Positions 1-62,595 of a stretch of DNA of 64,000 nt are shown here, piece by piece; position 1 is the first letter of the stretch; every line of letters begins with the position of its first letter. The position numbers and the translations under genes were made by a program. Source of the DNA: Burkholderia mayonis (GTDB lineage: Bacteria > Pseudomonadota > Gammaproteobacteria > Burkholderiales > Burkholderiaceae); NCBI RefSeq assembly GCF_001523745.2, contig NZ_CP013387.1, positions 1,426,001 through 1,490,000 of the forward strand, written 5' to 3'. Below the pieces are notes generated by a model. The model was not told where the DNA came from and made no database searches. It saw nothing but the letters and a program-made list of their open reading frames with translations.

Positions 1-2360
1 TTCGCCGGGTCGCCCGTCACGCCGGTCACCATCAGCCGCAGCAGATCGCAGCTTTCGCCGAATGCCAGCACGGCGTCCGCGCACGGCGCGAGCATCTCGG
101 TGCCGATCTCGACCGAATTGCTGAACGGCGTGCGCTGCGACGCGAACACCGCTGCGTTCAGCGCGCCCGCGACGTGCGCGAGCTTGCCCTTGACGATTTC
201 CAGCAGGTACGGATTCTTCTTCTGCGGCATCAGCGACGAGCCGCCGCTCAGCTCGTCCGGCAGCGCGAGGAAATCGGTCTCGCGCATCGTCCAGAGCTGC
301 AGGTCGTGCGCGAGCCGGCTCAACGTCGTCGACGCGATCGCGATCGCGGACAGGACATGCAGCACGAGATCGCGGCTCGCGACCGCGTCGAGCGCACTGT
401 CGAAGCTGCGCGCGAAGCCGAGCAGCGCCGCGCTCACGTCCGGACGGATCGGAAAATCGGTGCCGGCGCCCGCGCCCGCGCCGAGCGGGCAGACGGCGAG
501 ATCGTCGTCGAGCCGGTCGAGCGCCGCCTGGTCGCGCCGCAGCGCGGTTTCGACCGACCACAGGTAGTAGCCGAAGCTGCCGGGCTGCGCGGCCTGGTAC
601 TGGCTGTACGTGGGCAGCGGCCAGTCGAGCGTGTGCTGCGCCTTGTCGATGAGCGCCGCCCGGACGCGCCACAGCTTGCCGCCGCACGTATCGAGCCAGT
701 CGCGCGCACGCAGCTTCGCGACGCACGCGTTGATGTCGTTGCGGGACCGCGCGGTATGCACCGCGCCGCCCGCGTCGATCCCGACCCGCTCGATGATCAA
801 CTGCTCGTACAGCGCATACGCGCCGCGCGGCGCGACGGCGTCGGCGATCGCGGCGAACTCCGCGTCGCGCTGCCGTGCGATTTCCGCGAGCACCGTCGCG
901 GCCCGCGCACGGTCGCAGATGCCCGCATCGACGAGCATCAGCAGATGCGCCTCGTCGATCGCCGCGAACGCGTCGAGTTCGGCGAGCCGCTCCGCGCGCG
1001 GCGCCGGCTTGCGGACGATCGAGAGCGCCTCCGGTTGCAGCGTGCGGCGCAGCCGGCCGGTGCTCGCGCCTTCGCCGGCCGCGTCGGCGTCGTCGAGCAC
1101 GACCGTCACACGCCGCTCGACGCCTTCGAGCGCGTGCGCGAGCGTGTCCGGATCGGCTGCGGACGCGATGACGAGCGCGAGACGGTCACGGAAATCGCCG
1201 GTCAGATCGACGCGCTGGCCGGGCTGTTTCAACGGCATGAAGCGCATGCGCACCGCAGGGAAGCGGTCGTCCGGCTCGAACGACAGCGCCTTCAGCTCGC
1301 CGCGCCGCGCGGGCAGCACGAAACGGATCGCTGCGTGGTCGCGGCGGCGCGGGCCCAGGTCCGGCGGCGTGCCCGCGTGCAGGTCGATCATCGCGCCGAG
1401 GACGTCGACGCCCGTCGCCCATTCGACCGCCTGCGGGATCATGCCGCCCGCGAGACGCGGATTGATTTCGATCACGACGACCTTGCCGCCGCTCACGCGG
1501 CATTCGACGTGGGCCGGGCCGAAGCGGTGGCCGGTCGCGTCGAGCGCGCGCAGCGTCTCGGCGACGATCGCATCGCGCTGCGCGGCGGATATCCGCGCGG
1601 GAAAATCGTGACCGCGCTCGACGAAGAACGGCAGCGGCCCGAGATGCTTGCCGGTCACGCCGAGCACCGCATAGCCGTGCGCCGCGCCGAGTCCGACGAC
1701 TTCGACCGAAAATTCCGTGCCGTCGACGAACGATTGCACGAGCAGTTGCGGCGCGACCGCGATGCCGCGCTCGTTGCTGCGCGCGTCGAGGATCCGGTCG
1801 CCGTGCGCGAGCATGTCGGCTTCCGTCTGCACGAGCCGTACGCCGACGCTGCCGGAGCCGAACGCCGGCTTCAGCACGCGCGGATACGTGAGGCCGCGCG
1901 CCAGATCGCGCAGTTGCGTCCGATCGGACACGATCTCGGTGTCCGCCGTGCCGACGCCCGCGTCGCGCAGGCACCGGTAAAGCCGGCCCTTGTCGCGGCA
2001 GGCGCGGATCGCGTCCGGGTCCGCCGCGGGCAAGCCGAAGCGCGCGGCCACGGTCGCGGCGGTTTCGATGTAGTACTCGGACGTCGAGTAGATCCCGCCG
2101 ATCGCCGGATACGGCGCGAGCGCGTCGACGATCCGCTGCGGATCGGACGTGTCGGCGACGAGCGGCGCGACCCTCTCTTCCTGCAGGAACGGATAGAGCT
2201 GCGGCCGGCTCGTGACGAACAGCACGTCGAAGCCGCGCAGCAGCGCCTTTTGCAGACAGAGCCGGCCGGTGCCGGTGGTGTTGCTTTCGATGAATACGAA
2301 GGTCTTCACGATGAATGTGGCCGCCAAAGGAAAATCGAAACGCGCCGCTCGCGGCGTCAT
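1..2360 (-). CDS. ATP-grasp ligase fused to argininosuccinate-lyase-like domain (partial, runs off left edge)
   Basis: A continuous leftward reading frame of about 786 residues enters from the left edge. Residues about 18-420 form an ATP-grasp ligase, with the Mg-binding strand EINPRLAGG and a preceding glycine-rich loop. From about residue 430 the frame continues into an argininosuccinate lyase/fumarase-family domain, with HTARSRND near 533 and the family signature SSLMPQKKNPY near 711. I chose ATG at 2360 because it overlaps the upstream stop as ATGA; a GTG at 2309 (protein starting MKTFVFIES) is the alternative and fits ATP-grasp N-termini well. ATP-grasp enzymes make amide bonds through acyl phosphates; argininosuccinate lyases split N-succinyl adducts to fumarate. 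With the adjacent PLP enzyme and kinase, the lyase half could release 2,3-diaminobutyrate from an aspartate adduct (inference). The C-terminus is outside the window. Confidence 0.85.
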   Translation of the reverse strand, partial: MTPRAARFDFPLAATFIVKTFVFIESNTTGTGRLCLQKALLRGFDVLFVTSRPQLYPFLQEERVAPLVADTSDPQRIVDALAPYPAIGGIYSTSEYYIETAATVAARFGLPAADPDAIRACRDKGRLYRCLRDAGVGTADTEIVSDRTQLRDLARGLTYPRVLKPAFGSGSVGVRLVQTEADMLAHGDRILDARSNERGIAVAPQLLVQSFVDGTEFSVEVVGLGAAHGYAVLGVTGKHLGPLPFFVERGHDFPARISAAQRDAIVAETLRALDATGHRFGPAHVECRVSGGKVVVIEINPRLAGGMIPQAVEWATGVDVLGAMIDLHAGTPPDLGPRRRDHAAIRFVLPARRGELKALSFEPDDRFPAVRMRFMPLKQPGQRVDLTGDFRDRLALVIASAADPDTLAHALEGVERRVTVVLDDADAAGEGASTGRLRRTLQPEALSIVRKPAPRAERLAELDAFAAIDEAHLLMLVDAGICDRARAATVLAEIARQRDAEFAAIADAVAPRGAYALYEQLIIERVGIDAGGAVHTARSRNDINACVAKLRARDWLDTCGGKLWRVRAALIDKAQHTLDWPLPTYSQYQAAQPGSFGYYLWSVETALRRDQAALDRLDDDLAVCPLGAGAGAGTDFPIRPDVSAALLGFARSFDSALDAVASRDLVLHVLSAIAIASTTLSRLAHDLQLWTMRETDFLALPDELSGGSSLMPQKKNPYLLEIVKGKLAHVAGALNAAVFASQRTPFSNSVEIGTEMLAPCADAVLAFGESCDLLRLMVTGVTGDPA

Positions 2361-3472
2361 GCGACAGGCGCGGGCCGGACGTCGCGGATCTGCTCAAGCA
2401 CGCTGCCCGCCGGACGCGAGCGGCCGGTCGCCTGCTCGAACGTGCGGCGCCCCCATTCGACGTACGCCCACGGGCCGGACGCGGCGTTCGGACTCACCGC
2501 GCGCACGGGCTCGGCGTCCGGCGCGGCATCGGCATCGGCGTGCCCTTGCTCGCGCAGCCATGCGTCGTCATAGACGGTGTCGATGTAGCGGTGCCCTTCG
2601 TCGGGCGCGATGAACACGATCGTCCTGCCGTCGTCGCGCTGCGCGCGCAGCCATTCGGCGACCATGAATGCCGCGCCGGACGTCGGCCCGCAATACAGCC
2701 CGTGCCGCCGGTGCAGCCGGCGCGTGCTCGCGAAGGCCTCGGCGGCCGACACCCAGTGCACCTGGTCGAAGCACGTGTGGTCGAGGTTGTTCGGATAGAT
2801 CGAGTTGCCGAGGCCGCGCAGCGCGCGCGGACCGACCGGCAGGCCGAACAGCACGCTGCCGAACGTATCGACGCCGACGAGCGGAATCGACGGATCGACC
2901 TCGCGCAGCGCCCGGATCGTGCCGCACGTCGACGCGCCCGAGCCGACCGTGCCGACGATCGCGAGATGCGTGCCGAACGTGCGGATCAGCTGCGCGGCGA
3001 ATGCGCGATACGCGCGTTGGTTGTCCGGGTTGTCGTACTGCCGCGGCCAGAAGCCGCCGGGGTTGTCGCGCAGTTGCTCCTGCAACGCTTCGAGCCGCAG
3101 CACCTGAACGTTCGAGCCGGTCGCGTTCGCCCCGACGATCTGCACGCGCCCGCCGAGCTGCCGCAGGCGCGCCTGCAGCCGTTCGTCGATCGCCGCGTCG
3201 CTGACGATGTGAAACGGGATGCGCTTTTCCGCGCAGACGATCCCGATGCCCATCGCGAACGTGCCGCTCGACGTCTCGAGCACGGGCATCCCCGGATTCA
3301 GCTGCCCGCTCGCGATCGCGTGCTCGATGATGTACTTGGCGGGCACGAGCTTCATCAGGCGGAACGCGGCCGCGACGAGTCCCGGCCCGAGCCGGATCAG
3401 GTCGGGATGGTCGAGCGAGCCGGAGACGCTGTCGTACACCTGGAAGGCGGGTCTGTCGATGGTGTGGGTCAT
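2357..3472 (-). CDS. Cysteine-synthase-like PLP-dependent enzyme (DabA/SbnA-type candidate)
   Basis: 371 residues of the beta-family (fold type II) PLP enzymes. The likely Schiff-base lysine lies in LVPAKYIIEHA, the phosphate-side loop is ETSSGTFAMG, and the glycine-rich PLP phosphate loop is GTVGSGASTCGT. The protein is longer than typical cysteine synthases (about 310 residues) through a C-terminal extension. The start ATG overlaps the upstream TGA (ATGA), and the stop overlaps the next gene in the same way. In 2,3-diaminobutyrate or diaminopropionate pathways such enzymes replace a phospho-hydroxyl of a beta-hydroxy amino acid with an amine. The kinase at 5408-6325 would supply phosphothreonine and aspartate could be the amine donor. 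Family assignment is firm; substrate is inference. Confidence 0.85.
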   Translation of the reverse strand: MTHTIDRPAFQVYDSVSGSLDHPDLIRLGPGLVAAAFRLMKLVPAKYIIEHAIASGQLNPGMPVLETSSGTFAMGIGIVCAEKRIPFHIVSDAAIDERLQARLRQLGGRVQIVGANATGSNVQVLRLEALQEQLRDNPGGFWPRQYDNPDNQRAYRAFAAQLIRTFGTHLAIVGTVGSGASTCGTIRALREVDPSIPLVGVDTFGSVLFGLPVGPRALRGLGNSIYPNNLDHTCFDQVHWVSAAEAFASTRRLHRRHGLYCGPTSGAAFMVAEWLRAQRDDGRTIVFIAPDEGHRYIDTVYDDAWLREQGHADADAAPDAEPVRAVSPNAASGPWAYVEWGRRTFEQATGRSRPAGSVLEQIRDVRPAPVA

Positions 3473-4125
3473 GATGTCGTTCGTGCGATCGATTGTTCGA
3501 GCATCCGCAAATAGGCATCCGTCTCGGGGCTCGCGCCGCGCACCGCGCGCGGCCAGCGGGCGTCCCGCCATTCGTCCGCGAGCGCGGCCTTCGTGCGATC
3601 GTCGGCGCTGCGGTAGCGCCGGTAGACCCACTCGACGCCGCCCGCGATCGCGGCTTTCATTTCGTCCGCGAACTTGCTCGGCTCGAGCGAATGGCGCGGC
3701 AGCTCGACGTGCGACGGCGACGCGCCGCTTGCCGGCGCAGGCGACACGCCGAGCAGTTCGAGCCGGCCGAGCGCGTTCTTGCGGATCTCGGTCAGGAAGG
3801 CCGCGCCGGCGGGCGACGTGATGCTCACGCGGTAATTGCCGGCGGCGACGCGCCCCGTGCCGCCGACCTTCGCGCCCGGCAGCCGGTAGTACGAGACCGT
3901 GCCGCGCTCGACGAGCACGAACTCGAGCCCGCGATAGCGCAACATCGACGGATGGAAGAAGTCCGTGATCAGCCAGCGCACGCCGTCGATCCGGTGAATC
4001 CAGTAATAGATGAGCGGATGGCCCTCGACCATCTCGCCGAACGCCGCCTCGAGGCGGCGCAGCTCGGCGTCGGTCAGCGGCTCGAACGGGGCTTCGCGGT
4101 ACAGCAGGCGGCGCAGCAGCATCAT
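3469..4125 (-). CDS. Uncharacterised protein of the biosynthetic operon
   Basis: 218 residues, not recognised. The start at 4125 has a good Shine-Dalgarno (GGAGGA) and overlaps the MFS stop as ATGA; the stop overlaps the next start. No signal peptide or membrane segment is evident. An aromatic-rich middle part (around HPLIYYWIHRIDGVRWLITD) and conserved-looking WVYRRYR near residue 165 suggest a globular cytoplasmic protein. Its position inside a tightly coupled biosynthetic operon suggests a tailoring, accessory or resistance role, but nothing in the sequence identifies one. Confidence 0.8.
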   Translation of the reverse strand: MMLLRRLLYREAPFEPLTDAELRRLEAAFGEMVEGHPLIYYWIHRIDGVRWLITDFFHPSMLRYRGLEFVLVERGTVSYYRLPGAKVGGTGRVAAGNYRVSITSPAGAAFLTEIRKNALGRLELLGVSPAPASGASPSHVELPRHSLEPSKFADEMKAAIAGGVEWVYRRYRSADDRTKAALADEWRDARWPRAVRGASPETDAYLRMLEQSIARTTS

Positions 4126-5354
4126 GCTTCCTCCTTCGTGTCGAAGCAGCGCGCGACGACGAAGATCGCGCACGCGCACGCGGCGATCAGCGACGTCGCC
4201 GCCATCACCTTGTAGATCGCCAGGTACTGCGCGAGATAGCTGTAAAGGAAATACATCACGGCGATCGTGAGCGACATGCACAGCCCGATCAGCGACAGGA
4301 ACGACGCGCGAATCCGGCTCGGCAGACGCTTGTTGAAGTACTCGTTGGCGACGACCGTGACGATCGGATTGATGATCATGACGAGGAAGAACCCGGTGAA
4401 GTCGACGGCCGCGACGTTGAAAAACATCGACGCGAGCACGACCGCGGTCAAGAGCGTGCTCGCGAGCACCACCGGATAGAAGCCGAGGAACGACATGGTC
4501 CGCTGCATGACGAGATAGACCATGCCGATCAGCATCTGCGCGGCGAAAAAGAACCACGTGATGTGCTCGACGCTGAATCCGTTCTCCTTGAAGAGCGCCT
4601 GGCTGAACGTGAAGAACGGCGTCGTGCAGGCCGCGAACACGGTGAAGCCGAGGATCGGCAGCGCGACGCTTCTCCAATGTCCGCGGATGAACGCGAACAG
4701 CTCCTTCGTCACGTCCTTGCGCCCCGTGTGTTTTTCCGTCGGCGCTTCGGGCGGCTCCATCGCGAAGCACCACGCGGCGAGCGCCGCCGCGTAGATCGCG
4801 AAATACGCGGCATAGACCGCGTTCCAAGACACCTTCTGGAGCAAGCCGCCCGCGAGCACGGCGAACGCGCCGGAGATCAGGCCGAGCGCGTTCGCGCGCA
4901 GCTGCACCCGGTTGAAATGCGAGACGCGGCCGTCGACGACGAGGCTGTCGTAGAGGAGCGCGGTGTCCGAGCCGTACACGAGCGCGAGCGCGACGCCGAG
5001 GAGCGCGTACAGGCAGACGAACGGCGCGAAGCCGTCGCTGACGATGACGCCGAGCGCGTACACGCAGTACGCGACGAGCCCGAGCAGCACCGAGCGCTTG
5101 CGGCCGAACGCATCGCCGAACATGCCGGCGGGCACTTCGGTCACGATGTTCGCGAGAAAGAACACGCCCTGCAGGATGCCGATCTGATACGCGTCGAACC
5201 CCTTGTGCATCAGGAAGATCACGAAAATCGCGCGATCGATGATCGCGAGCGTCAGCACCCGGTACGCGAGATAGATGCGCTCGTTTCGCGCGCTGAGCGC
5301 GTACCCGGTCGCGACGGCGCTCGGCGCTTCAGCGACGGATTCAGAAAATGGCAT
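4122..5354 (-). CDS. MFS-family transporter
   Basis: 410 residues with about 12 hydrophobic segments. A major-facilitator loop after the second helix reads GMFGDAFGRKRSVLLG. Start ATG at 5354 is preceded by AAGGA. It lies between the kinase and the unknown gene, with a 53-base gap upstream, and is translationally coupled downstream. As the only obvious transporter in the cluster it most probably exports the product or confers self-protection. Direction and substrate are inferred from context only. Confidence 0.88.
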   Translation of the reverse strand: MPFSESVAEAPSAVATGYALSARNERIYLAYRVLTLAIIDRAIFVIFLMHKGFDAYQIGILQGVFFLANIVTEVPAGMFGDAFGRKRSVLLGLVAYCVYALGVIVSDGFAPFVCLYALLGVALALVYGSDTALLYDSLVVDGRVSHFNRVQLRANALGLISGAFAVLAGGLLQKVSWNAVYAAYFAIYAAALAAWCFAMEPPEAPTEKHTGRKDVTKELFAFIRGHWRSVALPILGFTVFAACTTPFFTFSQALFKENGFSVEHITWFFFAAQMLIGMVYLVMQRTMSFLGFYPVVLASTLLTAVVLASMFFNVAAVDFTGFFLVMIINPIVTVVANEYFNKRLPSRIRASFLSLIGLCMSLTIAVMYFLYSYLAQYLAIYKVMAATSLIAACACAIFVVARCFDTKEEA

Positions 5355-5407
5355 GGTCGTCCTTGCCGAAGCGAAGCGGGAGCGGTTCGGCCGCGCGTGC
5401 GCAGCGG

Positions 5408-6325
5408 CTATTGGATCGTGTCATAGACCTTTACGGTTCCGTATCCCGAGAGCGCATCGATCGCCTGCGCGAGGTTGTCGCGGTGGCCCGGCCGGCCGGT
5501 GTCGTACAGGATGCCGATGCACGTGCCGCTGTGCGCCGTCACGAGTCCGATCCCCCGCGTCGCCTTGCACACGTCGTGAACCGCGGCCAGATGGCGCTTC
5601 GGATTGATCTTCTGGTTGATGTACGCGCTGCGGGTCGACACGCTGCCGATCTCGTCCAGATCGCGCGCGCCGAACGCCGCGACGATCCGATCGAGCAGCT
5701 CGTTGAACTCGCTGCGATGCTCGACGTTGTGCCGATGCGCGCGGTCGCGGCGGTGATACTCGAGCGTGTCGATCGTGCCGCCCTCGTCGAGCGACAGGAT
5801 CTGGATGCCGGACAGACGCCCGAGTTTCGACCACAGCATCCCCTTGCGCTGCAGGTAGACGACCGACTCCGCGAACATCACGCCGTCGGTCGGCTCGATG
5901 CCGCTCATGTCGCGGCACAGCTCGCCAAGCGGCAGCTCGCGGCCCATGTAGACCTCGATCGCGCGCGCGGTCGCGAGCAAATCGGCGGACGAGCTGCTGA
6001 GCCCCTTGCCGATCGGGATGTCGCAATCGATGTAGAACGTCCCGCCGACGTTGTGCCCGTAGCGCCGGAGGATCACCTTCGCGAGCGCCGCGGCCTTCGT
6101 CTTGCCGCTCGGATGCGTGACGATCTCGGTGCTGCCGTGGTCCGGCACGAACGTGCTCACCGAATACTTCTGGATCGGCAGCGTGACGAGAAAATCGGCG
6201 TCGTCCTCGTGCAGCACGCCCTGCAGCAGTTCGCCGAACGAGCAGTACGAGATGCCCGACGCCGTTCGGGCGGCCGGGATGAATGAACGCATGGGCTCCG
6301 ACATGGTCAGTGCTCGCTCGGTCAT
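5408..6325 (-). CDS. GHMP-family kinase, PduX-like (L-threonine kinase candidate)
   Basis: 305 residues. The GHMP ATP-binding motif PIGKGLSSSSADLLA lies at about residues 104-118, and the overall length and N-terminal SFGELLQGVL match the PduX/threonine-kinase branch. Start ATG at 6325 overlaps the argH-like stop (ATGA), which excludes longer upstream starts. PduX phosphorylates L-threonine in cobalamin assembly. There are no cobalamin genes here; a PLP beta-replacement enzyme and an argininosuccinate-lyase domain are in the same operon, so phosphothreonine as precursor of 2,3-diaminobutyrate is the best reading. Family assignment is good; substrate is inferred. Confidence 0.8.
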   Translation of the reverse strand: MTERALTMSEPMRSFIPAARTASGISYCSFGELLQGVLHEDDADFLVTLPIQKYSVSTFVPDHGSTEIVTHPSGKTKAAALAKVILRRYGHNVGGTFYIDCDIPIGKGLSSSSADLLATARAIEVYMGRELPLGELCRDMSGIEPTDGVMFAESVVYLQRKGMLWSKLGRLSGIQILSLDEGGTIDTLEYHRRDRAHRHNVEHRSEFNELLDRIVAAFGARDLDEIGSVSTRSAYINQKINPKRHLAAVHDVCKATRGIGLVTAHSGTCIGILYDTGRPGHRDNLAQAIDALSGYGTVKVYDTIQ

Positions 6326-7722
6326 CGGCCGGGCTGATGCGCGTCCAGCATCGAGCGAAGCCGCGCGAGCAGTTCGCCGAGCGCCTGGACGCCGCACGAG
6401 CCGTACGAATTCTTGCGCGCCACCATGTCCTCGACGGTAATGCCGCCGATGTCGTCGCCGAACAGCGGGCTCGCCTCGGCGAACGTCGCATGAGGCAACG
6501 CCGACACGTCGACGCCGCGCGCATCCGCCGTCTTCACCAGCTCGCCGACGACCCGATGCGCTTCACGGAACGGCATTCCCTTTCGGACCAGATAGTTCGC
6601 GTACTCGGTCGCGATGATGTGCCCGCCGAGCGTCGCCTGCCGCATCCTGTCGGGCACGGGCGCCATCGTGCGGACCAGCTCGGTCAGGATCGCGAGCGAC
6701 GTCATGCAGTTGTCGAGCGCGGCGAACCACGCGGTCTTGTCCTCCTGCAGATCCTTGTTGTAGCCGAGCGGCAGCGCCTTCAGGAGCGCCATCAGGCTCA
6801 TCGCATTGCCGATCACGGACGCCGCCTTGCCGCGCACGAGCTCCGGCACGTCGGGGTTCTTCTTCTGCGGCATGATCGAGCTGCCGGTGCAGTAGCCGTC
6901 CGCGAGCGCGATGAAACCGAACTCCTGGCTCGTGAACGAAATGAGTTCCTCCGACAGCCGGGACAGATGGATCATCAGATTCGCCGCATGCGCGCCGAAT
7001 TCGACCAGATAGTCGCGGTCGGACACCGAATCGATGCTGTGCAGCGTCGGCTCCTTGAAGCCCAGCAGCGACGCCGAGCGCCGGCGGTCGATCGGCAGGC
7101 TCGTGCCGGTCGACGCGCATGCGCCGAGCGGGCACTGATCAGCGCGCGCGAGCGCGTCGACGAAACGGCTGCGGTCGCGATCGAGCATCACCACGTAAGT
7201 CGCGAGCCAGTGCGCGTAATACGTGAATTCGGCGCGTTGCAGATGCGTGTACGACGGCATCACGAGCCCGCCATGATGCTCGCCGTGCTCGAAGAGCGCG
7301 CGCTGCAGCGTGTCGATCGCGTCGACCAGCTCGCGCGTCGAGCGCATGAAGTAGATGCGCTGCGCGCTCGCCTGCTGATCGTTGCGGCTGCGCGCGGTAT
7401 GCGTCTTCTTGCCGAGCTCGCCGACCTTGTCGACCAGCAGCGTCTCGAGGTTCATGTGGATGTCCTCGAGCGCGGGCGACAACTGGATCTCGCCCGCGCG
7501 CCACGCGGCGCGGATCTCGTCGAGCGCGCGCGCGAGCGCCTCGTGCTCCGCCGTCTGAAGCAGGCCGACGGCATGCAGCATCTCGATGTGCGCGGCCGTG
7601 CCGTCGATGTCGGCTTCGAAGAGCCGCGCCTCGAGCGGCAGGCTCGTGTTGAACGCCACCAGGCTGTCGGTCATCGACTGGCTGAAGCGCCCGGCCCACG
7701 GATTCGCCATCGGATTGCTCAT
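6322..7722 (-). CDS. argH: Argininosuccinate lyase homologue
   Basis: 466 residues, normal length for ArgH, with HTARSRNDQQ near residue 110 and the family signature GSSIMPQKKNPD. It splits argininosuccinate-type adducts into a guanidine or amidine product plus fumarate. Start at 7722 overlaps the argG-like stop (ATGA). It is one of two lyase homologues in the operon, the other being fused to the ATP-grasp domain. Pairing with the argG-like gene points to a specialised nitrogen-transfer step, or to a dedicated arginine supply for the product. Whether the substrate is true argininosuccinate cannot be told. Confidence 0.88.
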   Translation of the reverse strand: MSNPMANPWAGRFSQSMTDSLVAFNTSLPLEARLFEADIDGTAAHIEMLHAVGLLQTAEHEALARALDEIRAAWRAGEIQLSPALEDIHMNLETLLVDKVGELGKKTHTARSRNDQQASAQRIYFMRSTRELVDAIDTLQRALFEHGEHHGGLVMPSYTHLQRAEFTYYAHWLATYVVMLDRDRSRFVDALARADQCPLGACASTGTSLPIDRRRSASLLGFKEPTLHSIDSVSDRDYLVEFGAHAANLMIHLSRLSEELISFTSQEFGFIALADGYCTGSSIMPQKKNPDVPELVRGKAASVIGNAMSLMALLKALPLGYNKDLQEDKTAWFAALDNCMTSLAILTELVRTMAPVPDRMRQATLGGHIIATEYANYLVRKGMPFREAHRVVGELVKTADARGVDVSALPHATFAEASPLFGDDIGGITVEDMVARKNSYGSCGVQALGELLARLRSMLDAHQPGR

Positions 7723-8933
7723 GCGCCGGCTCCCGATTTCGCGGCGCGCGCGGCTTCGATGCCGATGCGCAGGCCGAGCGTGTTCAGGAAACCCGTCGCG
7801 TCCTCGCCGCTGATCGCGCGGCCCGCGTGCAGCGTCACGAAATCGCGCGAATAGAGCGACTGCTCCGATTCGACGGCGGACGCCGTACATGAACCCTTGT
7901 AGAGCTGAACCTTCACGTCGCCGCTCACGTATTTCTGCGATGCGTCGATGAGCGCCTGCAGGCACAGCCGCTCGTCGCTGAACCACAGACCGCGGTAGAC
8001 GATGTCGCCGTAGTCGTCGGACACGAGGTTGCGCAGGCGCTCGACGTCGCGGCCGAGCGTGATCTTCTCGAGCTTGCGATGCGCGGCATGCAGGATCGTC
8101 AGCGCGGGATTCTCGAACACGCCGCGCACCTTGAGGCCGTTGATGCGGTTCTCGATGATGTCCTGGAAGCCGACGCCGTTGCGGGCGCCCACCTCGTTCA
8201 GCCGCTCGATCAGCTCGACCGGCCCGAGCGCCGCGCCGTCGACGGAGACGGGCACGCCCTGGCGGAAACCGACCGTGATCGTCTCGACCGCATCCGGCGC
8301 ATCGGTGGGCGGCGTGATCCAGTTCACGTCGAGCCAGTTGAACTCGTTCGCGACGCTTTCCAGATAGTCGCCTTCCGTCGTGATGTGCACGAGGTTCTCG
8401 TCGTGGCTCAACAGATTGTCCGGACGGCTTTCGACCGGAATGTCGTGCTGCTGGCAATACGCGAACAGATCCTCGCGCGATTGCAGCGACCAGATGCGCC
8501 ACGGCGCGACGGTCGGCAGATCGGGCGCGAGGATCTTCGCGGCCATCTCGAAGCGCACCTGATCGTTGCCCTTCTGCGTGCAGCCGTGCGACAGGCAGTC
8601 GACGTCATGCTTGCGCGCGTACTCGATGAGCCCCTTCACGATCGCCGGCCGGGCGAGCGGCGTGCCGAGCAGATAGTCACGCTCGTACGAGGCGTTCGCC
8701 TTCAGCGCGGGGAACACGAAATCACCGATGAACGTCTCGCGCAGATCCTCGATGACCAGATCGTCCGCACCGGCGATCGCCGCGCGGCGCTTCATCCGCT
8801 CCCAATCCTCTTTCTGCCCGAGGTTCGCGCAATAGGCGGTGACGCGGCAATCGAAATGCTGCTTCAGGAAATGCAGCGCGGTGGACGTGTCGAGACCGCC
8901 GGAATAAGCGAGGAGAATGTGTTTGGGTTTCAT
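7719..8933 (-). CDS. argG: Argininosuccinate synthase homologue
   Basis: 404 residues, usual bacterial length. The N-terminal PP-loop AYSGGLDTSTAL binds ATP. The enzyme activates a ureido (or related carbonyl) group with ATP and joins aspartate to it. Start ATG at 8933 is preceded by a GGA-type site. It is coupled to the lyase downstream, and a formyltransferase lies directly upstream. A second copy within a biosynthetic operon suggests either arginine supply for the product or amidination of a non-ornithine substrate; the formyltransferase next door makes a formamide-to-amidine reaction conceivable (speculation). Confidence 0.88.
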   Translation of the reverse strand: MKPKHILLAYSGGLDTSTALHFLKQHFDCRVTAYCANLGQKEDWERMKRRAAIAGADDLVIEDLRETFIGDFVFPALKANASYERDYLLGTPLARPAIVKGLIEYARKHDVDCLSHGCTQKGNDQVRFEMAAKILAPDLPTVAPWRIWSLQSREDLFAYCQQHDIPVESRPDNLLSHDENLVHITTEGDYLESVANEFNWLDVNWITPPTDAPDAVETITVGFRQGVPVSVDGAALGPVELIERLNEVGARNGVGFQDIIENRINGLKVRGVFENPALTILHAAHRKLEKITLGRDVERLRNLVSDDYGDIVYRGLWFSDERLCLQALIDASQKYVSGDVKVQLYKGSCTASAVESEQSLYSRDFVTLHAGRAISGEDATGFLNTLGLRIGIEAARAAKSGAGA

Positions 8934-8973
8934 GTCGGATCTTCCGTGATGGATGGGTTCGCCGCCTCGTCGA

Positions 8974-9792
8974 CTAGCCGACGAGGTAGTTGTCGCGCTT
9001 GCCGCGAATCTGGTTGACGTTGTCGGCCAGTTCCGAGAATTCGATGCCGATGCTGTATTTCTTGCCGTCGATCTTCATCACGCAGCCGCCGCTGCCTCGG
9101 AAGCAGAACACGCGCAGGAGATCGATGAGCTCGCGCGCGACGTAGGTCGCGTTCGGATCGATCTCCATCGCCTCGTTGGTTTCGGTGATCTTCTTGCGCG
9201 TGCCTTTGTGCCGCTGCCGGAATAGCTGATAGGTGCCGCTTTCGATGCTCGGCCAGGTCGTCTGGAACAGCTCGACCGACGCGTCCATGTGCTTGTCGTA
9301 GATGACGTCGCCCGTGTCCGTTCCATCGATCAGCACGCGCTTCTGGCTGATGACCGGCCCCGCGTCGACCGCCGACACGATCCGGTGAATGCTGACGCCC
9401 GCCGGCGTGCCGTCGAGCACGGCCCACGCGTAGTAATAGAAGCCCTTGTTGTACGGCAGATAGCCCGGATGCAGATTGATCGAATCCTTCGTCGGCAGCT
9501 CGATGAAGCGATCGTCGAGGATGTAGTCGAAGTAGACCGAAACGATGAAGTCCGGCGCGAGCGGCGCGATCAGCTCGTCGAAGCGGGCGCGCGCATCGAG
9601 GATATCGATCGGCGGAATGCCGTGCCGCTCGCACACCTCGACGATTTCGTCGAGGTGCGTCGCGTTCGCTTCCGGATGGACGATTGCGCCGACGACCTCG
9701 ACGCTCGCCCTCTTTGCCAGATATGTAAGCGTTTCCAGCCCTGCGACGTTGTCAATGCAGAGCAGGACTTTCTCGCGAGTCATGTCATTCAT
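8974..9792 (-). CDS. Formyltransferase-family protein (methionyl-tRNA formyltransferase-like)
   Basis: 272 residues. The formyltransferase catalytic triad is kept: Asn106 and His108 in INLHPGYLP and Asp143 in SAVDAGPVI. Such enzymes move a formyl group from 10-formyltetrahydrofolate to an amine. There is no tRNA-binding C-terminal domain of the Fmt type, so a small-molecule amine is more likely. A weak AGGA site precedes ATG 9792; ATG 9783 is an alternative. Its place between the argG-like gene and the methyltransferase suggests that it acts on the same amino acid building block. Confidence 0.82.
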   Translation of the reverse strand: MNDMTREKVLLCIDNVAGLETLTYLAKRASVEVVGAIVHPEANATHLDEIVEVCERHGIPPIDILDARARFDELIAPLAPDFIVSVYFDYILDDRFIELPTKDSINLHPGYLPYNKGFYYYAWAVLDGTPAGVSIHRIVSAVDAGPVISQKRVLIDGTDTGDVIYDKHMDASVELFQTTWPSIESGTYQLFRQRHKGTRKKITETNEAMEIDPNATYVARELIDLLRVFCFRGSGGCVMKIDGKKYSIGIEFSELADNVNQIRGKRDNYLVG

Positions 9793-9848
9793 GTAGGAAT
9801 CCTATTCGGATCGCGCACGAAAGCGCGTCGAGCCGTTGATCGGATCAG

Positions 9849-10949
9849 TCAGCGATCCGCGCCGCGATACTTGAGGACGTAGCAGATGCCGAAACCGGAC
9901 GGATCCGCCTTCGGGCTCGTGACCTCGTCCCGGACGACGTCGTAGCCCGCTTCCGCGAAGATTACGTCCCACTCGCGCTTCGGCAGCAGCAGCTGATTGG
10001 TGAACGGATGCAGCAGGAAATACGGGTTGTAATACCCACGGCCCATCGGCGACTGCATGACGCCGCGATTGTCGATGTCATAGTCGACTTCCATCACCAT
10101 CAAGTAGCTGTCGGCGAATTTCCGGCCCAGCTTGCGCAGATACTCGATGAACGCCGGCCGGCCGATCTGCGCGATGATTTCCTGCAGCACGAAGCCGAAC
10201 AAGATGAAATCGGGCTGCTCGTCGATCTCGTAATCCAGCGCATCGACGTTGACGAGACGCACCTGCTCCTGCAACCCCATTTCCGCAACCTTCTTCAGGC
10301 CGGCTTCGTACGCGCTCGTATCCGGCTCGATGCCGATCGCCTTGATGTCGCCCAGTTCTTTCGCGAGCGTGCACAGGTAGAGCGCGTTGCCGCAGCCAAA
10401 GTCGACGATCTGCTTCGCATCCGGCTTCACCGACTCGATGAAAGCCTTGGTGATCGGAATCGTGTCGTACTTCGAAATCTGGCAACTGCCGATGCCAACC
10501 CACTTGCCGTCGCGCTTGTAGCCGCCGATGCCTTCCTTCAGCATCGCGCCGATATTCGAGAAGATGCTGTCGTAACCGCCGATCAGGATGTTGAACCACC
10601 CTTCGTAGTGTTTGATGCGGGAGCCGTAATCGGACAGCCGGAAAGATACCGCGTCCTCGCGCCCTTCCTTGACGAGCAGTCCTTCGACGGTCAGATACTC
10701 GAACACGGTGCGCAACAGGTACGGATCGAGCGAACGGCCGCTCGCGATTTCGTCGATGGACTTGCCCGCGAGCAGATCGTCGAACACGCCGAGCTTGAGC
10801 ATCTGGAAGATCACCTTCGCACCGACGAAGCCTTTCACATAGTCGAGCGTCTTGAACATTTCGGGCTGGAACCAGCGCGAATCCAGAATTTCTTCGACAG
10901 ACAGGTCTTCTTCGTGCGCTTGCGCACGAACGAGCGTTGCAGCGGTCAT
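9849..10949 (-). CDS. SAM-dependent methyltransferase, 2-ketoarginine-methyltransferase-like
   Basis: 366 residues with an N-terminal helical dimerisation/winged-helix part (about 1-130) and a class I methyltransferase fold with motif I VDFGCGNALYL near residue 185. The overall layout, and phrases such as KHYEGWFNILIGGYDS, resemble the 2-oxoacid C-methyltransferases of the MrsA type that methylate 2-ketoarginine for 3-methylarginine. That resemblance is from memory and moderate. The adjacent aminotransferase would interconvert amino acid and oxoacid, as such a pathway needs. Confidence 0.8.
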   Translation of the reverse strand: MTAATLVRAQAHEEDLSVEEILDSRWFQPEMFKTLDYVKGFVGAKVIFQMLKLGVFDDLLAGKSIDEIASGRSLDPYLLRTVFEYLTVEGLLVKEGREDAVSFRLSDYGSRIKHYEGWFNILIGGYDSIFSNIGAMLKEGIGGYKRDGKWVGIGSCQISKYDTIPITKAFIESVKPDAKQIVDFGCGNALYLCTLAKELGDIKAIGIEPDTSAYEAGLKKVAEMGLQEQVRLVNVDALDYEIDEQPDFILFGFVLQEIIAQIGRPAFIEYLRKLGRKFADSYLMVMEVDYDIDNRGVMQSPMGRGYYNPYFLLHPFTNQLLLPKREWDVIFAEAGYDVVRDEVTSPKADPSGFGICYVLKYRGADR

Positions 10950-10958
10950 GGAGTCACC

Positions 10959-11981
10959 TTATGAGTGGTCGGAATATTCGGCCAGCGCCGCGAGCAACCG
11001 ATCGTTGTCCTCTTCACGGCCGATGCTGATCCTGATGTGATGATGAAGTCCGAACTGGCCGGCGTCCTTCACCTGAATGCCCCGCTCGCGCAGGAACTGC
11101 AGCGTGCGCTCGCCGACGGCGTTTTTGACGAGAATGAAATTGGCTTCGGATGACGCGACGCGGTAGCCGAGCGCGCGCAGCGCATCAGCGACGCGGCGAC
11201 GCTCCGCGAGCGTCATCGCGATGTGCGCTTCACGCGCATGATCGTTGTCGAGCGCGGCTTCGAGCGCATGCAGATCGAGCGTGCCGACGTTGCAGAACCA
11301 CTGCTTGCGTTTCATCGACGCAATCAGCTCGCGTGGCCCGAACAGTGCACCGAGCCGCAAACCGGCGAGACCGTAGGATTTAGAAAACGAGCGAAACACC
11401 AGTTCGTTCTCACCGTAAGCCAGGCCGCGTGTGCGAAACGACGAATAATCGACGTAGGTTTCGTCGATCAACAGCTTGCCCGCGCGCCGCCTCAATTGAT
11501 CGAGCTCGCCGGCCGTCAGCGCCTGGCCGGTCGGATTCGACGGATTGGCGAGTACGACGCAATCGTTGCTCGACACTCGCGCGAGATCGTCCGGTTTCAA
11601 CAGCAGATCGTCGGTCAGACCGATTTCGAAGTGCCTGAGCCCGCTGACGGCAATCCGCCCGCGATAGCCGTCGAAGCCCGGCCACGCGGTGACGAATCGC
11701 ATCGACGAAAACTCAGCGCTGACTCGATCGAAGCATTCGTCGATGCCGCGCACCAGCATCAGGTTGTCCTCGGGACAATCGAAATGCTCCGCGAGCTTTT
11801 GCATGATTCTCGGTTCGGCGTCGAACGGGTAGCGATTGATTCGTGCGGCCGCGACCGCGATCGCGGCCCGCACACGCGGCTCCACCGCTTCCGGGTTTTC
11901 ATTGAACGCCAGACAGACAGCTTCCGCAGATGCCCGTTCTTCCATCAGTACTTCGGTATCCTTTGCTTCACCAACGCTCAC
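10959..11981 (-). CDS. PLP aminotransferase, HisC-like (class I/II)
   Basis: About 340 residues of the histidinol-phosphate aminotransferase subfamily: LAFNENP near the N-terminus, ANPSNPTG in the PLP-aspartate region, and the Schiff-base lysine in FRSFSKSYGLAG. I chose GTG at 11981 because AAGGA lies seven bases before it and this leaves a normal-length arm before the NENP motif; ATG at 11945 is the alternative. It lies 9 bases upstream of the methyltransferase. Together they could take an amino acid to its 2-oxoacid, C-methylate it and return it. The actual amino acid is unknown. Confidence 0.83.
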   Translation of the reverse strand: MSVGEAKDTEVLMEERASAEAVCLAFNENPEAVEPRVRAAIAVAAARINRYPFDAEPRIMQKLAEHFDCPEDNLMLVRGIDECFDRVSAEFSSMRFVTAWPGFDGYRGRIAVSGLRHFEIGLTDDLLLKPDDLARVSSNDCVVLANPSNPTGQALTAGELDQLRRRAGKLLIDETYVDYSSFRTRGLAYGENELVFRSFSKSYGLAGLRLGALFGPRELIASMKRKQWFCNVGTLDLHALEAALDNDHAREAHIAMTLAERRRVADALRALGYRVASSEANFILVKNAVGERTLQFLRERGIQVKDAGQFGLHHHIRISIGREEDNDRLLAALAEYSDHS

Positions 11982-12043
11982 GATTTCATCCTTGCCGATT
12001 CTAATGATTGTCGATTCTTGCCTGATGCATCGTGCGGATGGAA

Positions 12044-12928
12044 TCAGCGGGGTGGGGGATTCAGACCGGCCCGCTCGTTTTCCATGCCCTTCCAGCGCCA
12101 GCCCTCGAACGCACGCTTCATGTACTCGGTGAAGAACTCGGGCACCAGTCGGAACAGTTGCGGATACGTGATGAAGAACGTGCTGATGGAAATCGAAATG
12201 TCCATCGAGATCACACAGTGCCCCCAGTTGCGCGGAATGTGCAGCGTCTCGCCCGGTTCGATGATCGCCCGGTACGGCGTGCAGTGCCGATAGTTCGGAT
12301 AGCGCTCGAGATCCGGCTTCTCGAAATCGACCGGACTGAACGTCTCGCGCTCGAACTGGCCGATATAGAGATTCTTGCTGACCTGGTCCGGCGGAAACAG
12401 GTACACCATCTTCCGGCCCACGACCTGCGTCAGGAAATTCGGCATCGGATCGGTATGGGTCGGCGTGTGCGTGCCGGCCGGTCCGATCCACAGATACGAA
12501 TCCATGTGCGCGCCGGGAATGTGCTCGATATGCCCCTGCACATACGGATGCGGCGCGAGATCGGCGCGCAGGTTCGGAAAGCTCTTGCGGAACGGATGCG
12601 ACGCCATGTAGTACATGTGATCCGGCTTCGTCCGCAGGATGTGGATCAAATCCTTCAGCTTGAGCTCCTGGAAGCGCAGGTGCTTGACGTAACCTTGTGG
12701 GCTGTTGTTGCCGGGTCCGCGCTCGTCAGGCTGAAAGCTCTCGACGCCGATGGTCTCGTCGCCGAAATTGCGCTCGAAGTAGTTGAGCGACCATTTCTGC
12801 ATCGCCGGCCACGCGTCGAGCGCCCTCGCGATCTTCACCGGACGCTCTTTTTCCAGGTAATGCTTGCGGAAATCCGACACTTTGGGTCGAACCAGCGTTT
12901 CGATAGGCAGAATTTCATCGTACGGCAT
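12044..12928 (-). CDS. JmjC/cupin-8-type Fe(II)/2-oxoglutarate oxygenase
   Basis: 294 residues. The iron facial triad is visible as His158 and Asp160 in THTDPM and His237 in NWGHCV, with Lys173 as a candidate 2-oxoglutarate ligand (GRKMVYLFPP). These enzymes hydroxylate free or carrier-bound amino acids or proteins. The start ATG lies inside the last codons of the MbtH gene (14-base overlap), so translation is coupled. In context it is a candidate for hydroxylating the arginine-like or diaminobutyrate building block. Confidence 0.85.
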   Translation of the reverse strand: MPYDEILPIETLVRPKVSDFRKHYLEKERPVKIARALDAWPAMQKWSLNYFERNFGDETIGVESFQPDERGPGNNSPQGYVKHLRFQELKLKDLIHILRTKPDHMYYMASHPFRKSFPNLRADLAPHPYVQGHIEHIPGAHMDSYLWIGPAGTHTPTHTDPMPNFLTQVVGRKMVYLFPPDQVSKNLYIGQFERETFSPVDFEKPDLERYPNYRHCTPYRAIIEPGETLHIPRNWGHCVISMDISISISTFFITYPQLFRLVPEFFTEYMKRAFEGWRWKGMENERAGLNPPPR

Positions 12929-13139
12929 AGTCGATTCCCGAGCCCGAATGTTGATTGAGATGCTCGCGGACGCTGGCAGGAACCATGTCCGTCCATAGTT
13001 GCTCGATGCGTTGCAGGCACTGCTGCTTCGTCGCAGGTTCGCCGACCGTTTCCCAGCCGGCGGGAAGGCTTCGCCCATCCATCCAGACCGAATACTGGCC
13101 CTCATTATTTCGCACCACGAAGTGCAATTCGTCGTCCAT
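12915..13139 (-). CDS. MbtH-like protein
   Basis: 74 residues. It keeps the MbtH hallmarks: NNEGQYSVW, PAGWETVG and the C-terminal LWTDMVPASVREH with the conserved tryptophans. MbtH-like proteins bind and stabilise adenylation domains of nonribosomal peptide synthetases. It is the first gene of the leftward operon. No adenylation domain occurs in this window, so its partner must be beyond the left edge or elsewhere in the genome. Confidence 0.93.
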   Translation of the reverse strand: MDDELHFVVRNNEGQYSVWMDGRSLPAGWETVGEPATKQQCLQRIEQLWTDMVPASVREHLNQHSGSGIDYAVR

Positions 13140-13382: not shown

Positions 13383-14082
13383 CTTTCATCTTCAAGGCAC
13401 GAATAGAATTGGGCATAACTTCTCACGTGTCAAGCAATTTTGCGGCAAGGTGTCCTGCTTTATTTCAAACAGCAACGCATACCTGACAAATATTACAGGC
13501 GCAAAATTTACACACGGATGGCGCAAAGATTTCATTAACGGATGACAACCAGGAGGCGCGGCGCTTGCGGAGACCGATGCTTATGTTGCTCGCCGTCTGC
13601 TTCGAGGATTCAGCCAGCGCTTACTTGCCATCCGTTATCCCAGATATCGAAGGGGCGATCTATATCCATGAATCAAAACGTTATTTCCACGTCGCACACG
13701 TGCCAAATCAATCTTGCCGACTGGACTTCAGATTCGCGTGCCCGCTTATTAATTAAGCACGCACGTTATGCAAAATGTTGAATTTCGTTATGCCGATGAC
13801 GCCCAGAAATTTTTACCGAACAAGCGTTGGTTTAAAAAACATGCCAATTTCAAACGGATATACAAATCTCATCGACATCACCAGAGTCATCTGAAATTCA
13901 CTTGTATGAAATAGTTTCCACAAAACAAATAGATTGACCGATTATTTTCCGGTCGTTTTATCATTGCAATGAAGGCAACTAATTGCGCATTCGAAATGGG
14001 GCGGCTCCACTCGGGGCCCCGCTGCCCGACTGCAAAATGGGACGCGCATTTCGCGACATCGAACCCTGGAGCTCTTACACGC

Positions 14083-27896: not shown

Positions 27897-27960
27897 GATG
27901 AATCCTCGTCGAATGAGTCGTGGGCGTGGATGCGCTTCGGCGCTGCGAGCGGCGGAAGCG

Positions 27961-28761
27961 TCAATTCCATAGCGCGTGGAAATGATGGACGGGCCCGTGT
28001 CCGCGGCCGACATCGAGCTTGCCGGACGCGGCGAGCGCGTCGCCCAGATACGCCTTCGCGCGGCACACGCTGTCCTCGACCGAATGGCTCGGCAGCAGCG
28101 CGGCGATCGCGGCCGACAGCGTGCAGCCGGTGCCGTGGTCGTTTTTCGTCGCGACGCGCGGCGCGGACAGCTCGACCGTCGCCGCCGCCGGGCCGCGCAG
28201 TACGTCGACGCTGCGCTCGCCCGCCAGATGGCCGCCCTTCAGCAGCACCCAGCGCGGGCCGAGCGCGTGCAGCTCGGCCGCCGCCGTATGCATCTCGTCC
28301 AGCGTGCGCGGCTCGCTTCGATCGAGCAGCACGCCCGCTTCCGGCAGATTCGGCGTAATCAGCGTCGAGATCGGCACGAGCCTGTCGCGAATCGCGTCGA
28401 CCGCGTCCGGATCGAGCAGCCGGTCGCCGCTTTTCGCGACCATGACCGGATCGAGCACGATCGGCGCGGCGCGATGCCTGACGAGCGCCGCGGCGACCGC
28501 CTCCGCGATCGCCGCCGTCGCGATCATGCCGATCTTGACCGCGTGCACGGCGACGTCGTCGAACACCGCGTCGATCTGGTCCGCGACGAACGCCGGATCG
28601 AGCGCGCGGAAACCGCGCACGCCGGTCGTGTTCTGCGCGACGACCGCGGTGATCGCCGACATCCCATACGCGCGCATCGCCGAAAATGCCTTGAGATCGG
28701 CCTGAATGCCCGCTCCGCCTGTCGGGTCGGTGCCGGCGATCGTCAGTACGTTCGCGATCAT
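27961..28761 (-). CDS. thiD: Hydroxymethylpyrimidine/phosphomethylpyrimidine kinase
   Basis: 266 residues, normal ThiD length, with the N-terminal TIAGTDPTGGAGIQADLK, the VLDPVMVAKSGDRLL segment and the C-terminal anion hole DHGTGCTLSAA. It phosphorylates HMP to HMP-PP for thiamin synthesis. Start ATG has GAGGG. In this locus it may activate HMP salvaged after thiaminase action, or phosphorylate bacimethrin, which is known to enter thiamin biosynthesis as an HMP analogue. Confidence 0.92.
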   Translation of the reverse strand: MIANVLTIAGTDPTGGAGIQADLKAFSAMRAYGMSAITAVVAQNTTGVRGFRALDPAFVADQIDAVFDDVAVHAVKIGMIATAAIAEAVAAALVRHRAAPIVLDPVMVAKSGDRLLDPDAVDAIRDRLVPISTLITPNLPEAGVLLDRSEPRTLDEMHTAAAELHALGPRWVLLKGGHLAGERSVDVLRGPAAATVELSAPRVATKNDHGTGCTLSAAIAALLPSHSVEDSVCRAKAYLGDALAASGKLDVGRGHGPVHHFHALWN

Positions 28762-30727: not shown

Positions 30728-30728
30728 G

Positions 30729-62489: not shown

Positions 62490-62595
62490 ACGCGAAACGG
62501 ACCGCCATTCGGCGCGCGCGCCGCACATCGGCTTCTCCGGCGCGCGGCCGCCCCGGGCATTCGGCACGCGCCGCGCACCGGGCGGACGGCAGACG

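What the first reader, a model, noticed from the sequence alone, without database searches (positions are those of the whole stretch)
1..13139. Orphan biosynthetic operon built on aspartate-derived nitrogen, with an ATP-grasp/argininosuccinate-lyase fusion
One chain of at least twelve same-strand genes, many joined by ATGA overlaps, combines an MbtH-like protein, JmjC oxygenase, aminotransferase, C-methyltransferase, formyltransferase, ArgG, ArgH, threonine-kinase-like enzyme, PLP synthase and an ATP-grasp domain fused to a second ArgH-like domain. Two fumarate-releasing lyases in one operon imply two separate uses of aspartate as amine donor. I do not recognise the combination as a known product cluster.
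Basis: partly seen in the sequence, partly recalled or inferred. Interest (0 to 1): 0.85.

Follow-up and report, generated by a model that had tools for sequence, protein, structure and literature searches.

The report
Lipopeptide gene cluster with aspartate cassette
A run of bacterial genes that most likely makes an uncharacterised fatty-acid-linked five-residue peptide carries a small, widely shared enzyme set that appears to take nitrogen from aspartate to make an unusual diamino acid; the cluster is real and its product is unknown.

Summary
In detail: twelve same-strand genes, MbtH to the ATP-grasp/lyase fusion, run from 13139 leftward. The chain continues about 25 kb left of the window through an aldolase, a GNAT, a 6292-aa NRPS (FAAL-ACP plus five C-A-PCP modules), a carbamoyltransferase and a penicillin-amidase-family enzyme. 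The fusion is complete (911 aa). The cluster recurs in one other genome of the genus and in two Nannocystis genomes, with similar codes in all five A domains.

Kinase, SbnA-like PLP enzyme, ATP-grasp and lyase form a cassette: 23 of 23 loci with ATP-grasp plus this lyase have the PLP gene, 21 of 23 the kinase; 0 of 70 lyase-only loci have either. An acidic, Dab-like A-domain code recurs beside it in some.

Best reading: phospho-threonine (or -serine) plus aspartate gives an N-substituted aspartate; the lyase frees fumarate, leaving a 2,3-diamino acid. The second aspartate use (ArgG/ArgH) fits a methylarginine-type residue. The ATP-grasp role is open. Fused lyases have Tyr-Ser-Gln where argininosuccinate lyases have Tyr-Thr-His.

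Related diamino-acid gene sets are reported or recalled from other peptides, so this is a new variant of a known kind.

The parts
1..2360 (-). ATP-grasp (L-amino-acid-ligase type) + ASL-superfamily lyase fusion; continues 375 bases left of the window, 911 aa in all
   Evidence: Pfam ATP-grasp_4, Lyase_1, weak LAL_C2 (below its cut-off); NF002563 PRK02186 1218.8 bits against cut-off 625; full length
2357..3472 (-). SbnA/cysteine-synthase-like PLP enzyme (PALP), 371 aa
   Evidence: PF00291; best NCBIfam TIGR03945 SbnA 206.9 bits (below the 349.95 cut-off); best solved structures SbnA 5d84-5d87
3469..4125 (-). p218, protein of unknown family, 218 aa
   Evidence: no Pfam or NCBIfam match; 23 homologues; AF2 pLDDT 91.9; no Foldseek PDB match at E<=0.001
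4122..5354 (-). MFS transporter, probably export
   Evidence: PF07690; weak similarity, below cut-offs, to efflux models
5408..6304 (-). GHMP kinase, probably an amino acid O-kinase (Thr or Ser)
   Evidence: PF00288; a 31%-identical homologue lies in a B12 operon with threonine-phosphate decarboxylase
6322..7722 (-). argininosuccinate lyase (ArgH), canonical
   Evidence: TIGR00838 495.4 bits against cut-off 279.5; Tyr-Thr-His motif kept
7719..8933 (-). argininosuccinate synthase (ArgG)
   Evidence: NF001770 464.1 bits against cut-off 334; the genome holds a second ArgG on C1
8974..9792 (-). formyltransferase (amino-sugar / NRPS-formylation type)
   Evidence: PF00551 over cut-off, PF18216 below it; nearest structures sugar N-formyltransferases and linear gramicidin synthase subunit A
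9849..10949 (-). C-methyltransferase, 2-ketoarginine methyltransferase-like
   Evidence: TIGR04543 310.7 bits (cut-off 425); nearest structures 8rvc/8r4z, E about 3e-69
10959..11945 (-). class I/II aminotransferase, HisC-like (start uncertain, may lie upstream)
   Evidence: PF00155; TIGR01141 199.1 bits (cut-off 276.55)
12044..12928 (-). JmjC/Cupin_8 oxygenase, JMJD5-like
   Evidence: PF13621; nearest structures JMJD5, E about 1e-33
12915..13139 (-). MbtH-like protein
   Evidence: PF03621
13969..15972 (+). divergent gene: partial condensation domain + PCP + thioesterase; candidate release enzyme (no thioesterase was seen in the NRPS)
   Evidence: PF00975 and PF00550 over cut-off, part of PF00668 below it; a 43% homologue in the same position and orientation in G050

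Best explanation
The window holds the precursor-supply half of one NRPS cluster that makes an acyl-pentapeptide. The kinase phosphorylates an amino acid hydroxyl, most likely threonine. The SbnA-like PLP enzyme replaces the phosphate with the amine of L-aspartate, giving an N-(2-amino-2-carboxyalkyl)aspartate. The lyase half of the fusion releases fumarate, leaving a 2,3-diamino acid (2,3-diaminobutyrate, or 2,3-diaminopropionate if serine is used), which module 4 of the NRPS activates. The ATP-grasp half is an ATP-dependent carboxylate-amine ligase working on the same intermediate or product; its exact reaction is unknown. Separately, ArgG/ArgH, the ketoarginine-type methyltransferase and the aminotransferase supply an arginine-family residue, probably 3-methylarginine. 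JmjC oxygenase, formyltransferase and carbamoyltransferase decorate, the FAAL loads a fatty acid, and a penicillin-amidase-family enzyme may later remove it. Shown here: gene content, order, conservation, cassette co-occurrence, A-domain codes and motif changes. Inferred: every chemical step and the product.
For: Cassette: 23 of 23 loci with ATP-grasp plus this lyase have the PLP gene (match starts within 3.4 kb) and 21 of 23 the kinase (within 6.4 kb), against 0 of 70 lyase-only loci, 38 of which hold 3.5 kb or more on both sides. Gene fusions join ATP-grasp to lyase, and PLP to ATP-grasp in Streptomyces globosus. The PLP enzyme is nearest to SbnA and also matches CmnB. A kinase homologue sits beside threonine-phosphate decarboxylase in a B12 operon. 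The lyase keeps Arg-Ser-Arg-Asn and Ser-Ser-x-(Met/Leu)-Pro-Gln-Lys. Module 4 code DVWE(V/I)NTDDK is kept in 4 genomes, and a like code is found in 5 of the 13 further loci where an A domain was recovered (15 scanned); in L126 it is the lone A-domain gene inside the cassette. The methyltransferase is nearest to solved 2-ketoarginine methyltransferases. Papers, passages only: 2,3-diaminobutyrate of pacidamycin comes from threonine (PMC10714638); cysteine-synthase and argininosuccinate-lyase genes lie in a cluster for a diaminobutyrate lipopeptide (PMC12471526).
Against: No enzyme activity or product is known. In this model the ATP-grasp domain has no necessary task. The fused lyases lack the His of true argininosuccinate lyases, though 6 of 10 control lyases also have another residue (Tyr) there. 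PMC10714638 says diaminobutyrate is made from threonine and ammonia, not aspartate. The PLP enzyme scores below the SbnA cut-off and the methyltransferase below the ketoarginine one. No kinase was recognised near the Vibrio ruber cassette. 8 of the 13 further loci with an A domain do not show the Dab-like code in the stretch held, and three of the five that do are near-duplicates. The code comparison is with a recalled code (2,4-diaminobutyrate, DIWELTADDK). PMC12471526 also reports a related gausemycin producer without those two genes.
Confidence: 0.53

Rival explanations
1. The fusion is an amide-forming machine like PurC/PurB of purine synthesis (recalled): the ATP-grasp half couples a carboxylate to the amine of aspartate and the lyase half releases fumarate, leaving a carboxamide. 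Kinase and PLP enzyme make the substrate with some other nucleophile.
For: ATP-grasp and lyase are one protein in 16 of the 23 loci and lie within two genes of each other in the rest; the ligase half resembles L-amino-acid ligases; it gives both halves a joint task.
Against: The PLP enzyme is as tightly linked as the ATP-grasp and is fused to ATP-grasp in one locus, so all four probably act on one path. The recurrent neighbouring A-domain code looks like that for a basic diamino acid, not an amide (code recalled).
Confidence: 0.2
2. ArgG/ArgH in this operon do not make arginine but act with the neighbouring formyltransferase: an amine is formylated and the formamide is turned into a formamidine by aspartate addition and fumarate loss. 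(This rival concerns the second aspartate use and could hold beside the first-use models.)
For: Formyltransferase, ArgG and ArgH genes are consecutive in all four clusters, and the genome has another ArgG and another ArgH-like gene on C1, so extra copies need a reason.
Against: ArgG and ArgH score above the curated cut-offs for the ordinary enzymes, and a ketoarginine-type methyltransferase and a JMJD5-like oxygenase in the same operon point to arginine chemistry.
Confidence: 0.12
3. The cassette makes the diamino acid with ammonia or another amine, and the lyase and ATP-grasp halves only recycle or modify a by-product.
For: PMC10714638 names ammonia as the nitrogen source of diaminobutyrate in pacidamycin (passage).
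Against: Lyase and ATP-grasp accompany the PLP gene in all 23 loci, but those loci were recruited by similarity to the fusion, so cassettes without them would not have been seen. The lyase superfamily is of C-N/C-O lyases that release fumarate (general knowledge).
Confidence: 0.15

Closest known systems
Diaminobutyrate gene sets of friulimicin and of pacidamycin/mureidomycin-type clusters (gene content recalled; related passages seen in PMC4572928, PMC10714638, PMC12471526)
   Same: cysteine-synthase-like and argininosuccinate-lyase-like genes (PMC12471526; kinase recalled) tied to NRPS products with 2,3-diaminobutyrate; in mureidomycin an npsG homologue proposed for diaminobutyrate synthesis is needed for production (PMC4572928; the passage does not name its enzyme family)
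   Different: Here ATP-grasp and lyase are one protein with a Tyr-Ser-Gln motif; I could not compare sequences, as those papers or clusters were not held.
SbnA/SbnB staphyloferrin B pathway (2,3-diaminopropionate; SbnB recalled)
   Same: PLP enzyme nearest to SbnA
   Different: No SbnB-like gene was recognised among the operon's Pfam matches; a lyase, an ATP-grasp and a kinase are present instead; amine donor aspartate inferred, not glutamate
PRK02186 / NF002563 'argininosuccinate lyase' subfamily
   Same: The fusion is a clear member (1218.8 bits, cut-off 625)
   Different: The name is probably misleading: below the argH cut-off and without the usual His
Malleipeptin (mpn) lipopeptide cluster of the Burkholderia pseudomallei group
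   Same: Same genus, lipopeptide NRPS
   Different: 12 modules and 2,4-diaminobutyrate (PMC9581180 passages) against five modules here
3-methylarginine pathway (MrsA/MrsB, recalled)
   Same: Ketoarginine-type methyltransferase plus aminotransferase
   Different: Below the curated cut-off; embedded in an NRPS operon with its own ArgG/ArgH

Membership tests
PRK02186 (NF002563) ATP-grasp/lyase subfamily | whole-protein score over the curated cut-off of 625 | tested here: met
   1218.8 bits on the 786 aa inside the window
Argininosuccinate lyase (TIGR00838), fusion protein | score over 279.5 bits | tested here: not met
   209.3 bits, on the 786 aa inside the window, which lack the C-terminal 125 aa
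Argininosuccinate lyase (TIGR00838), fusion protein | Tyr-Thr-His in the region holding the catalytic-type His (role recalled) | tested here: not met
   Tyr-Ser-Gln in the window protein and in 17 of 23 loci; the other 6, with the lyase as a separate gene, keep Tyr-Thr-His; the three ASL/crystallin chains aligned have Tyr-Thr-His
Argininosuccinate lyase (TIGR00838), second gene 6322-7722 | score over 279.5 bits and Tyr-Thr-His | tested here: met
   495.4 bits; motif
Argininosuccinate synthase | NF001770 score over 334 | tested here: met
   464.1 bits
SbnA 2,3-diaminopropionate synthase (TIGR03945) | score over 349.95 | tested here: not met
   206.9 bits, though the best of the nine models matched
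2-ketoarginine methyltransferase (TIGR04543) | score over 425 | tested here: not met
   310.7 bits; nearest solved structures carry that name
GntG-type PLP aldolase (NF041359), left of the window | score over 230 | tested here: met
   269.4 bits on a 257-aa piece
Malleipeptin cluster | 12 NRPS modules | tested here: not met
   five A domains in one 6292-aa NRPS
Friulimicin/pacidamycin-type diaminobutyrate module | orthology of kinase, PLP synthase and lyase to those clusters | not tested
   the clusters were not at hand by name; two papers asked for were not held
Threonine kinase PduX/BluE (recalled) | phosphorylates L-threonine | tested here: inconclusive
   only a 31% homologue beside threonine-phosphate decarboxylase

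The most novel reading that the evidence does not exclude
The four-enzyme cassette is a general aspartate-fed nitrogen-transfer device of natural product assembly that has spread among at least five bacterial phyla. In the lineage where ATP-grasp and lyase are fused, a new catalytic arrangement (Gln in place of the His) arose. The fused protein either forms an amide from aspartate nitrogen in two steps or prepares the intermediate so that fumarate can leave, a reaction that, to my knowledge, is not assigned to any enzyme.
Probability: 0.25. Interest if true: 0.75.

Novelty: new variant of a known kind. Interest (0 to 1): 0.52.

Why it matters
If right, a gene signature (kinase, SbnA-like, ATP-grasp, lyase) would flag clusters that make 2,3-diamino acids with aspartate as nitrogen donor, a route parallel to the glutamate-based SbnA/SbnB one. 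It would give a task to a set of proteins now labelled 'argininosuccinate lyase' or 'lyase family protein' (of the 120 listed of 351 matches, 116 are 870-941 aa long, the length of the fusion) and to an unassigned ATP-grasp domain. The cluster itself predicts an uncharacterised acyl-pentapeptide shared by Burkholderia and myxobacteria.

Tried and rejected

Limits of the counts: the 93 loci were recruited by similarity to the fusion, so a cassette without ATP-grasp would have been missed; the cut-offs (ATP-grasp over 100 bits, lyase over 80 bits, within 4.5 kb) were my choice. L015-L017, L117-L119 and L128-L129 are near-duplicates, and L011/L019 close kin. Of the 70 lyase-only loci, 32 have less than 3.5 kb on one side or both, and L021 looks like a cassette cut by the contig end (226 bits to the lyase at the first bases); five of the 70 have weak ATP-grasp matches of 45-62 bits. 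Only 8 of the 20 listed plasmid hits were opened. The tree puts the L133 lyase outside the cassette group, on a long branch; it is rooted at the midpoint for drawing only. The Fisher p-values ignore relatedness and are not used. The motif slice missed L011, which was read. The GNAT gene was not among the queries for the other clusters.

Full report
WHERE IT LIES. The window is C2:1426001-1490000 of a two-contig, 6.59 Mb genome. The nearest named copies of the fusion are from Burkholderia sp. F1 (93%), B. pseudomallei (90%, a protein cluster of 790 member sequences) and B. gladioli (77%); the nearest p218 is named from B. oklahomensis (92%). I take it as a Burkholderia near, but not identical to, B. 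pseudomallei (inference; records near the window's own genome may have been left out of some searches, as the tools say).

THE OPERON. Reading leftwards from 13139: MbtH, JmjC oxygenase, aminotransferase, C-methyltransferase, formyltransferase, ArgG, ArgH, GHMP kinase, MFS transporter, p218, PLP enzyme, ATP-grasp/lyase fusion. Left of the window the same strand continues with a GntG-type aldolase (window coordinates -522 to -1592), a GNAT acetyltransferase (-1649 to -2221), an NRPS of 6292 aa (-2218 to -21096), a carbamoyltransferase (from about -21190, ending at -22908) and a penicillin-amidase-family enzyme (-23025 to -25400). The NRPS reads as FAAL-ACP followed by five C-A-PCP modules, with no thioesterase seen at its end (motifs and sequence; Pfam on four pieces). 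A divergent gene at 13969-15972 (+) carries a PCP and a thioesterase.

CONSERVATION OF THE CLUSTER. Only G050 has a 77% copy; G033, G012, G021 and G030 have 37-41% copies in other gene settings. G050 carries the queried genes in the same order from MbtH to the acylase (66-89% per protein, NRPS 70%), and the TE protein is 43% identical; GNAT was not queried. Two Nannocystis genomes carry the block from JmjC to carbamoyltransferase in the same order (40-72%); MFS, MbtH, TE and acylase gave no hit at E<=1e-5 in the 52-kb stretches. Codes of the five A domains are alike in all four: A1 D(A/V)WF(L/F)(G/A)AV(V/I)K, A2 DAWFLGHVVK, A3 DAE(T/V)SGIIGK, A4 DVWE(V/I)NTDDK, A5 DVQQ(I/V/L)GHVD. So a similar five-residue scaffold is probably made in both lineages, which points to horizontal transfer (inference).

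THE CASSETTE. I examined 93 loci: 80 from the genome scan (135 relatives found, best 80 kept), 5 of the same genus and 8 plasmid records. ATP-grasp plus this type of lyase was found in 23. All 23 have an SbnA-like PLP gene close by, and 21 have the kinase. The two without are Vibrio ruber (L013), where Pfam shows no kinase among five neighbouring proteins, one of them without any family, and L020, whose contig ends about 1 kb upstream of the PLP gene. None of the 70 lyase-only loci has a PLP or kinase hit; 38 of these have 3.5 kb or more on both sides, and one of the others, L021, looks like a cut cassette. The lyase is a separate gene in three Streptomyces records, S. globosus, Azospirillum and Sulfuriferula, ATP-grasp and lyase are one protein in 16 loci and are in two frames in L019; PLP and ATP-grasp are one protein in S. 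globosus. NRPS-like sequence lies within the stretch in 16 of 23 loci and not in 7, among them Azospirillum, the two rhizobial records and Sulfuriferula. In the tree the cassette lyases form one group apart from ordinary lyases, L133 excepted, and the fused type one group within it (98/96 support). The loci come from Pseudomonadota, Myxococcota, Bacillota, Chlamydiota and Actinomycetota.

MOTIFS. The fused type has Tyr-Ser-Gln-(Tyr/Phe)-Gln: the window protein and 17 of 23 loci. The 6 loci with the lyase as a separate gene have Tyr-Thr-His, as has the operon's own ArgH. Of 10 control lyases, 3 have Tyr-Thr-His, 1 Trp-Thr-His and 6 Thr-Tyr, so loss of the His is not confined to the fused type; Ser-Gln is. 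As the fused type is one clade this may be one event. Arg-Ser-Arg-Asn and Ser-Ser-x-(Met/Leu)-Pro-Gln-Lys are kept in the cassette lyases that could be read there. The ATP-grasp half has Glu-Ile-Asn-Pro-Arg, the metal-site motif of ATP-grasp enzymes (sequence; the role is recalled).

WHAT THE CASSETTE MAKES. The PLP enzyme is nearest to SbnA and also matches CmnB. A kinase homologue lies in a cobalamin operon with threonine-phosphate decarboxylase, which fits a kinase making O-phospho-threonine. Since O-phospho-serine is already a general metabolite (general knowledge), an added kinase favours threonine (inference). An A-domain code D(V/I)W(E/Q)xx(T/A)DD occurs in module 4 of all four clusters and in L013, L015, L016, L017 and L126, that is 5 of the 13 other loci where any A domain was recovered out of 15 scanned (L015-L017 are near-duplicates); in L126 it belongs to the single A-domain gene inside the cassette. 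It resembles the recalled code for 2,4-diaminobutyrate. Together this supports a 2,3-diamino acid built from phospho-threonine or phospho-serine and aspartate. A paper on related antibiotics names ammonia as donor (PMC10714638, passage), which speaks against it. The ATP-grasp role stays open; a PurC/PurB-like amide formation is the main rival.

THE SECOND USE OF ASPARTATE. ArgG and ArgH score as ordinary enzymes though the genome has other copies. With a methyltransferase nearest to 2-ketoarginine methyltransferases, a HisC-like aminotransferase, a JMJD5-like oxygenase and a GntG-type aldolase, an arginine-derived, probably methylated residue is the simplest reading. The neighbouring formyltransferase leaves a formamidine route open.

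p218. It has no Pfam or NCBIfam family. 23 proteins matched and the confident model (pLDDT 91.9, pTM 0.86) has no Foldseek match in the PDB at E<=0.001. It is present in all four clusters. Its function is unknown.

VERDICT. A real, conserved cluster for an uncharacterised acyl-pentapeptide with a recurrent aspartate-linked cassette: a new variant of known diamino-acid supply modules, with one unexplained domain and one protein of unknown family.

Noticed in passing
26517-28013 and 29738-30826, minus strand: Thiaminase-I-type protein and a thymidylate-synthase-like protein a few kb apart, reminiscent of the bacimethrin/thiaminase operon (recalled).
   Followed up: no
3469-4125, minus strand: p218: protein without known family and with a confident predicted fold that has no Foldseek PDB match at E<=0.001.
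   Followed up: partly
L013:12694-15105 +: The Vibrio ruber cassette has a penicillin-amidase-family gene directly after the fusion; the window's cluster has one further downstream.
   Followed up: no
L019:10001-12648 and L011:8908-9950: In Nannocystis sp. RBIL2 the ATP-grasp and lyase halves match in different frames; in N. pusilla the two parts of the PLP gene do. Real splits or assembly errors were not told apart.
   Followed up: no
L116 (G033, same genus): A second, 41%-identical kinase/PLP/fusion set beside NRPS sequence, with a piece of an aldolase at the stretch's edge; 40-42% proteins are also named from B. thailandensis, B. oklahomensis and B. mayonis.
   Followed up: partly
62326-63768, plus strand: RibD-like deaminase/reductase domain protein.
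   Followed up: no
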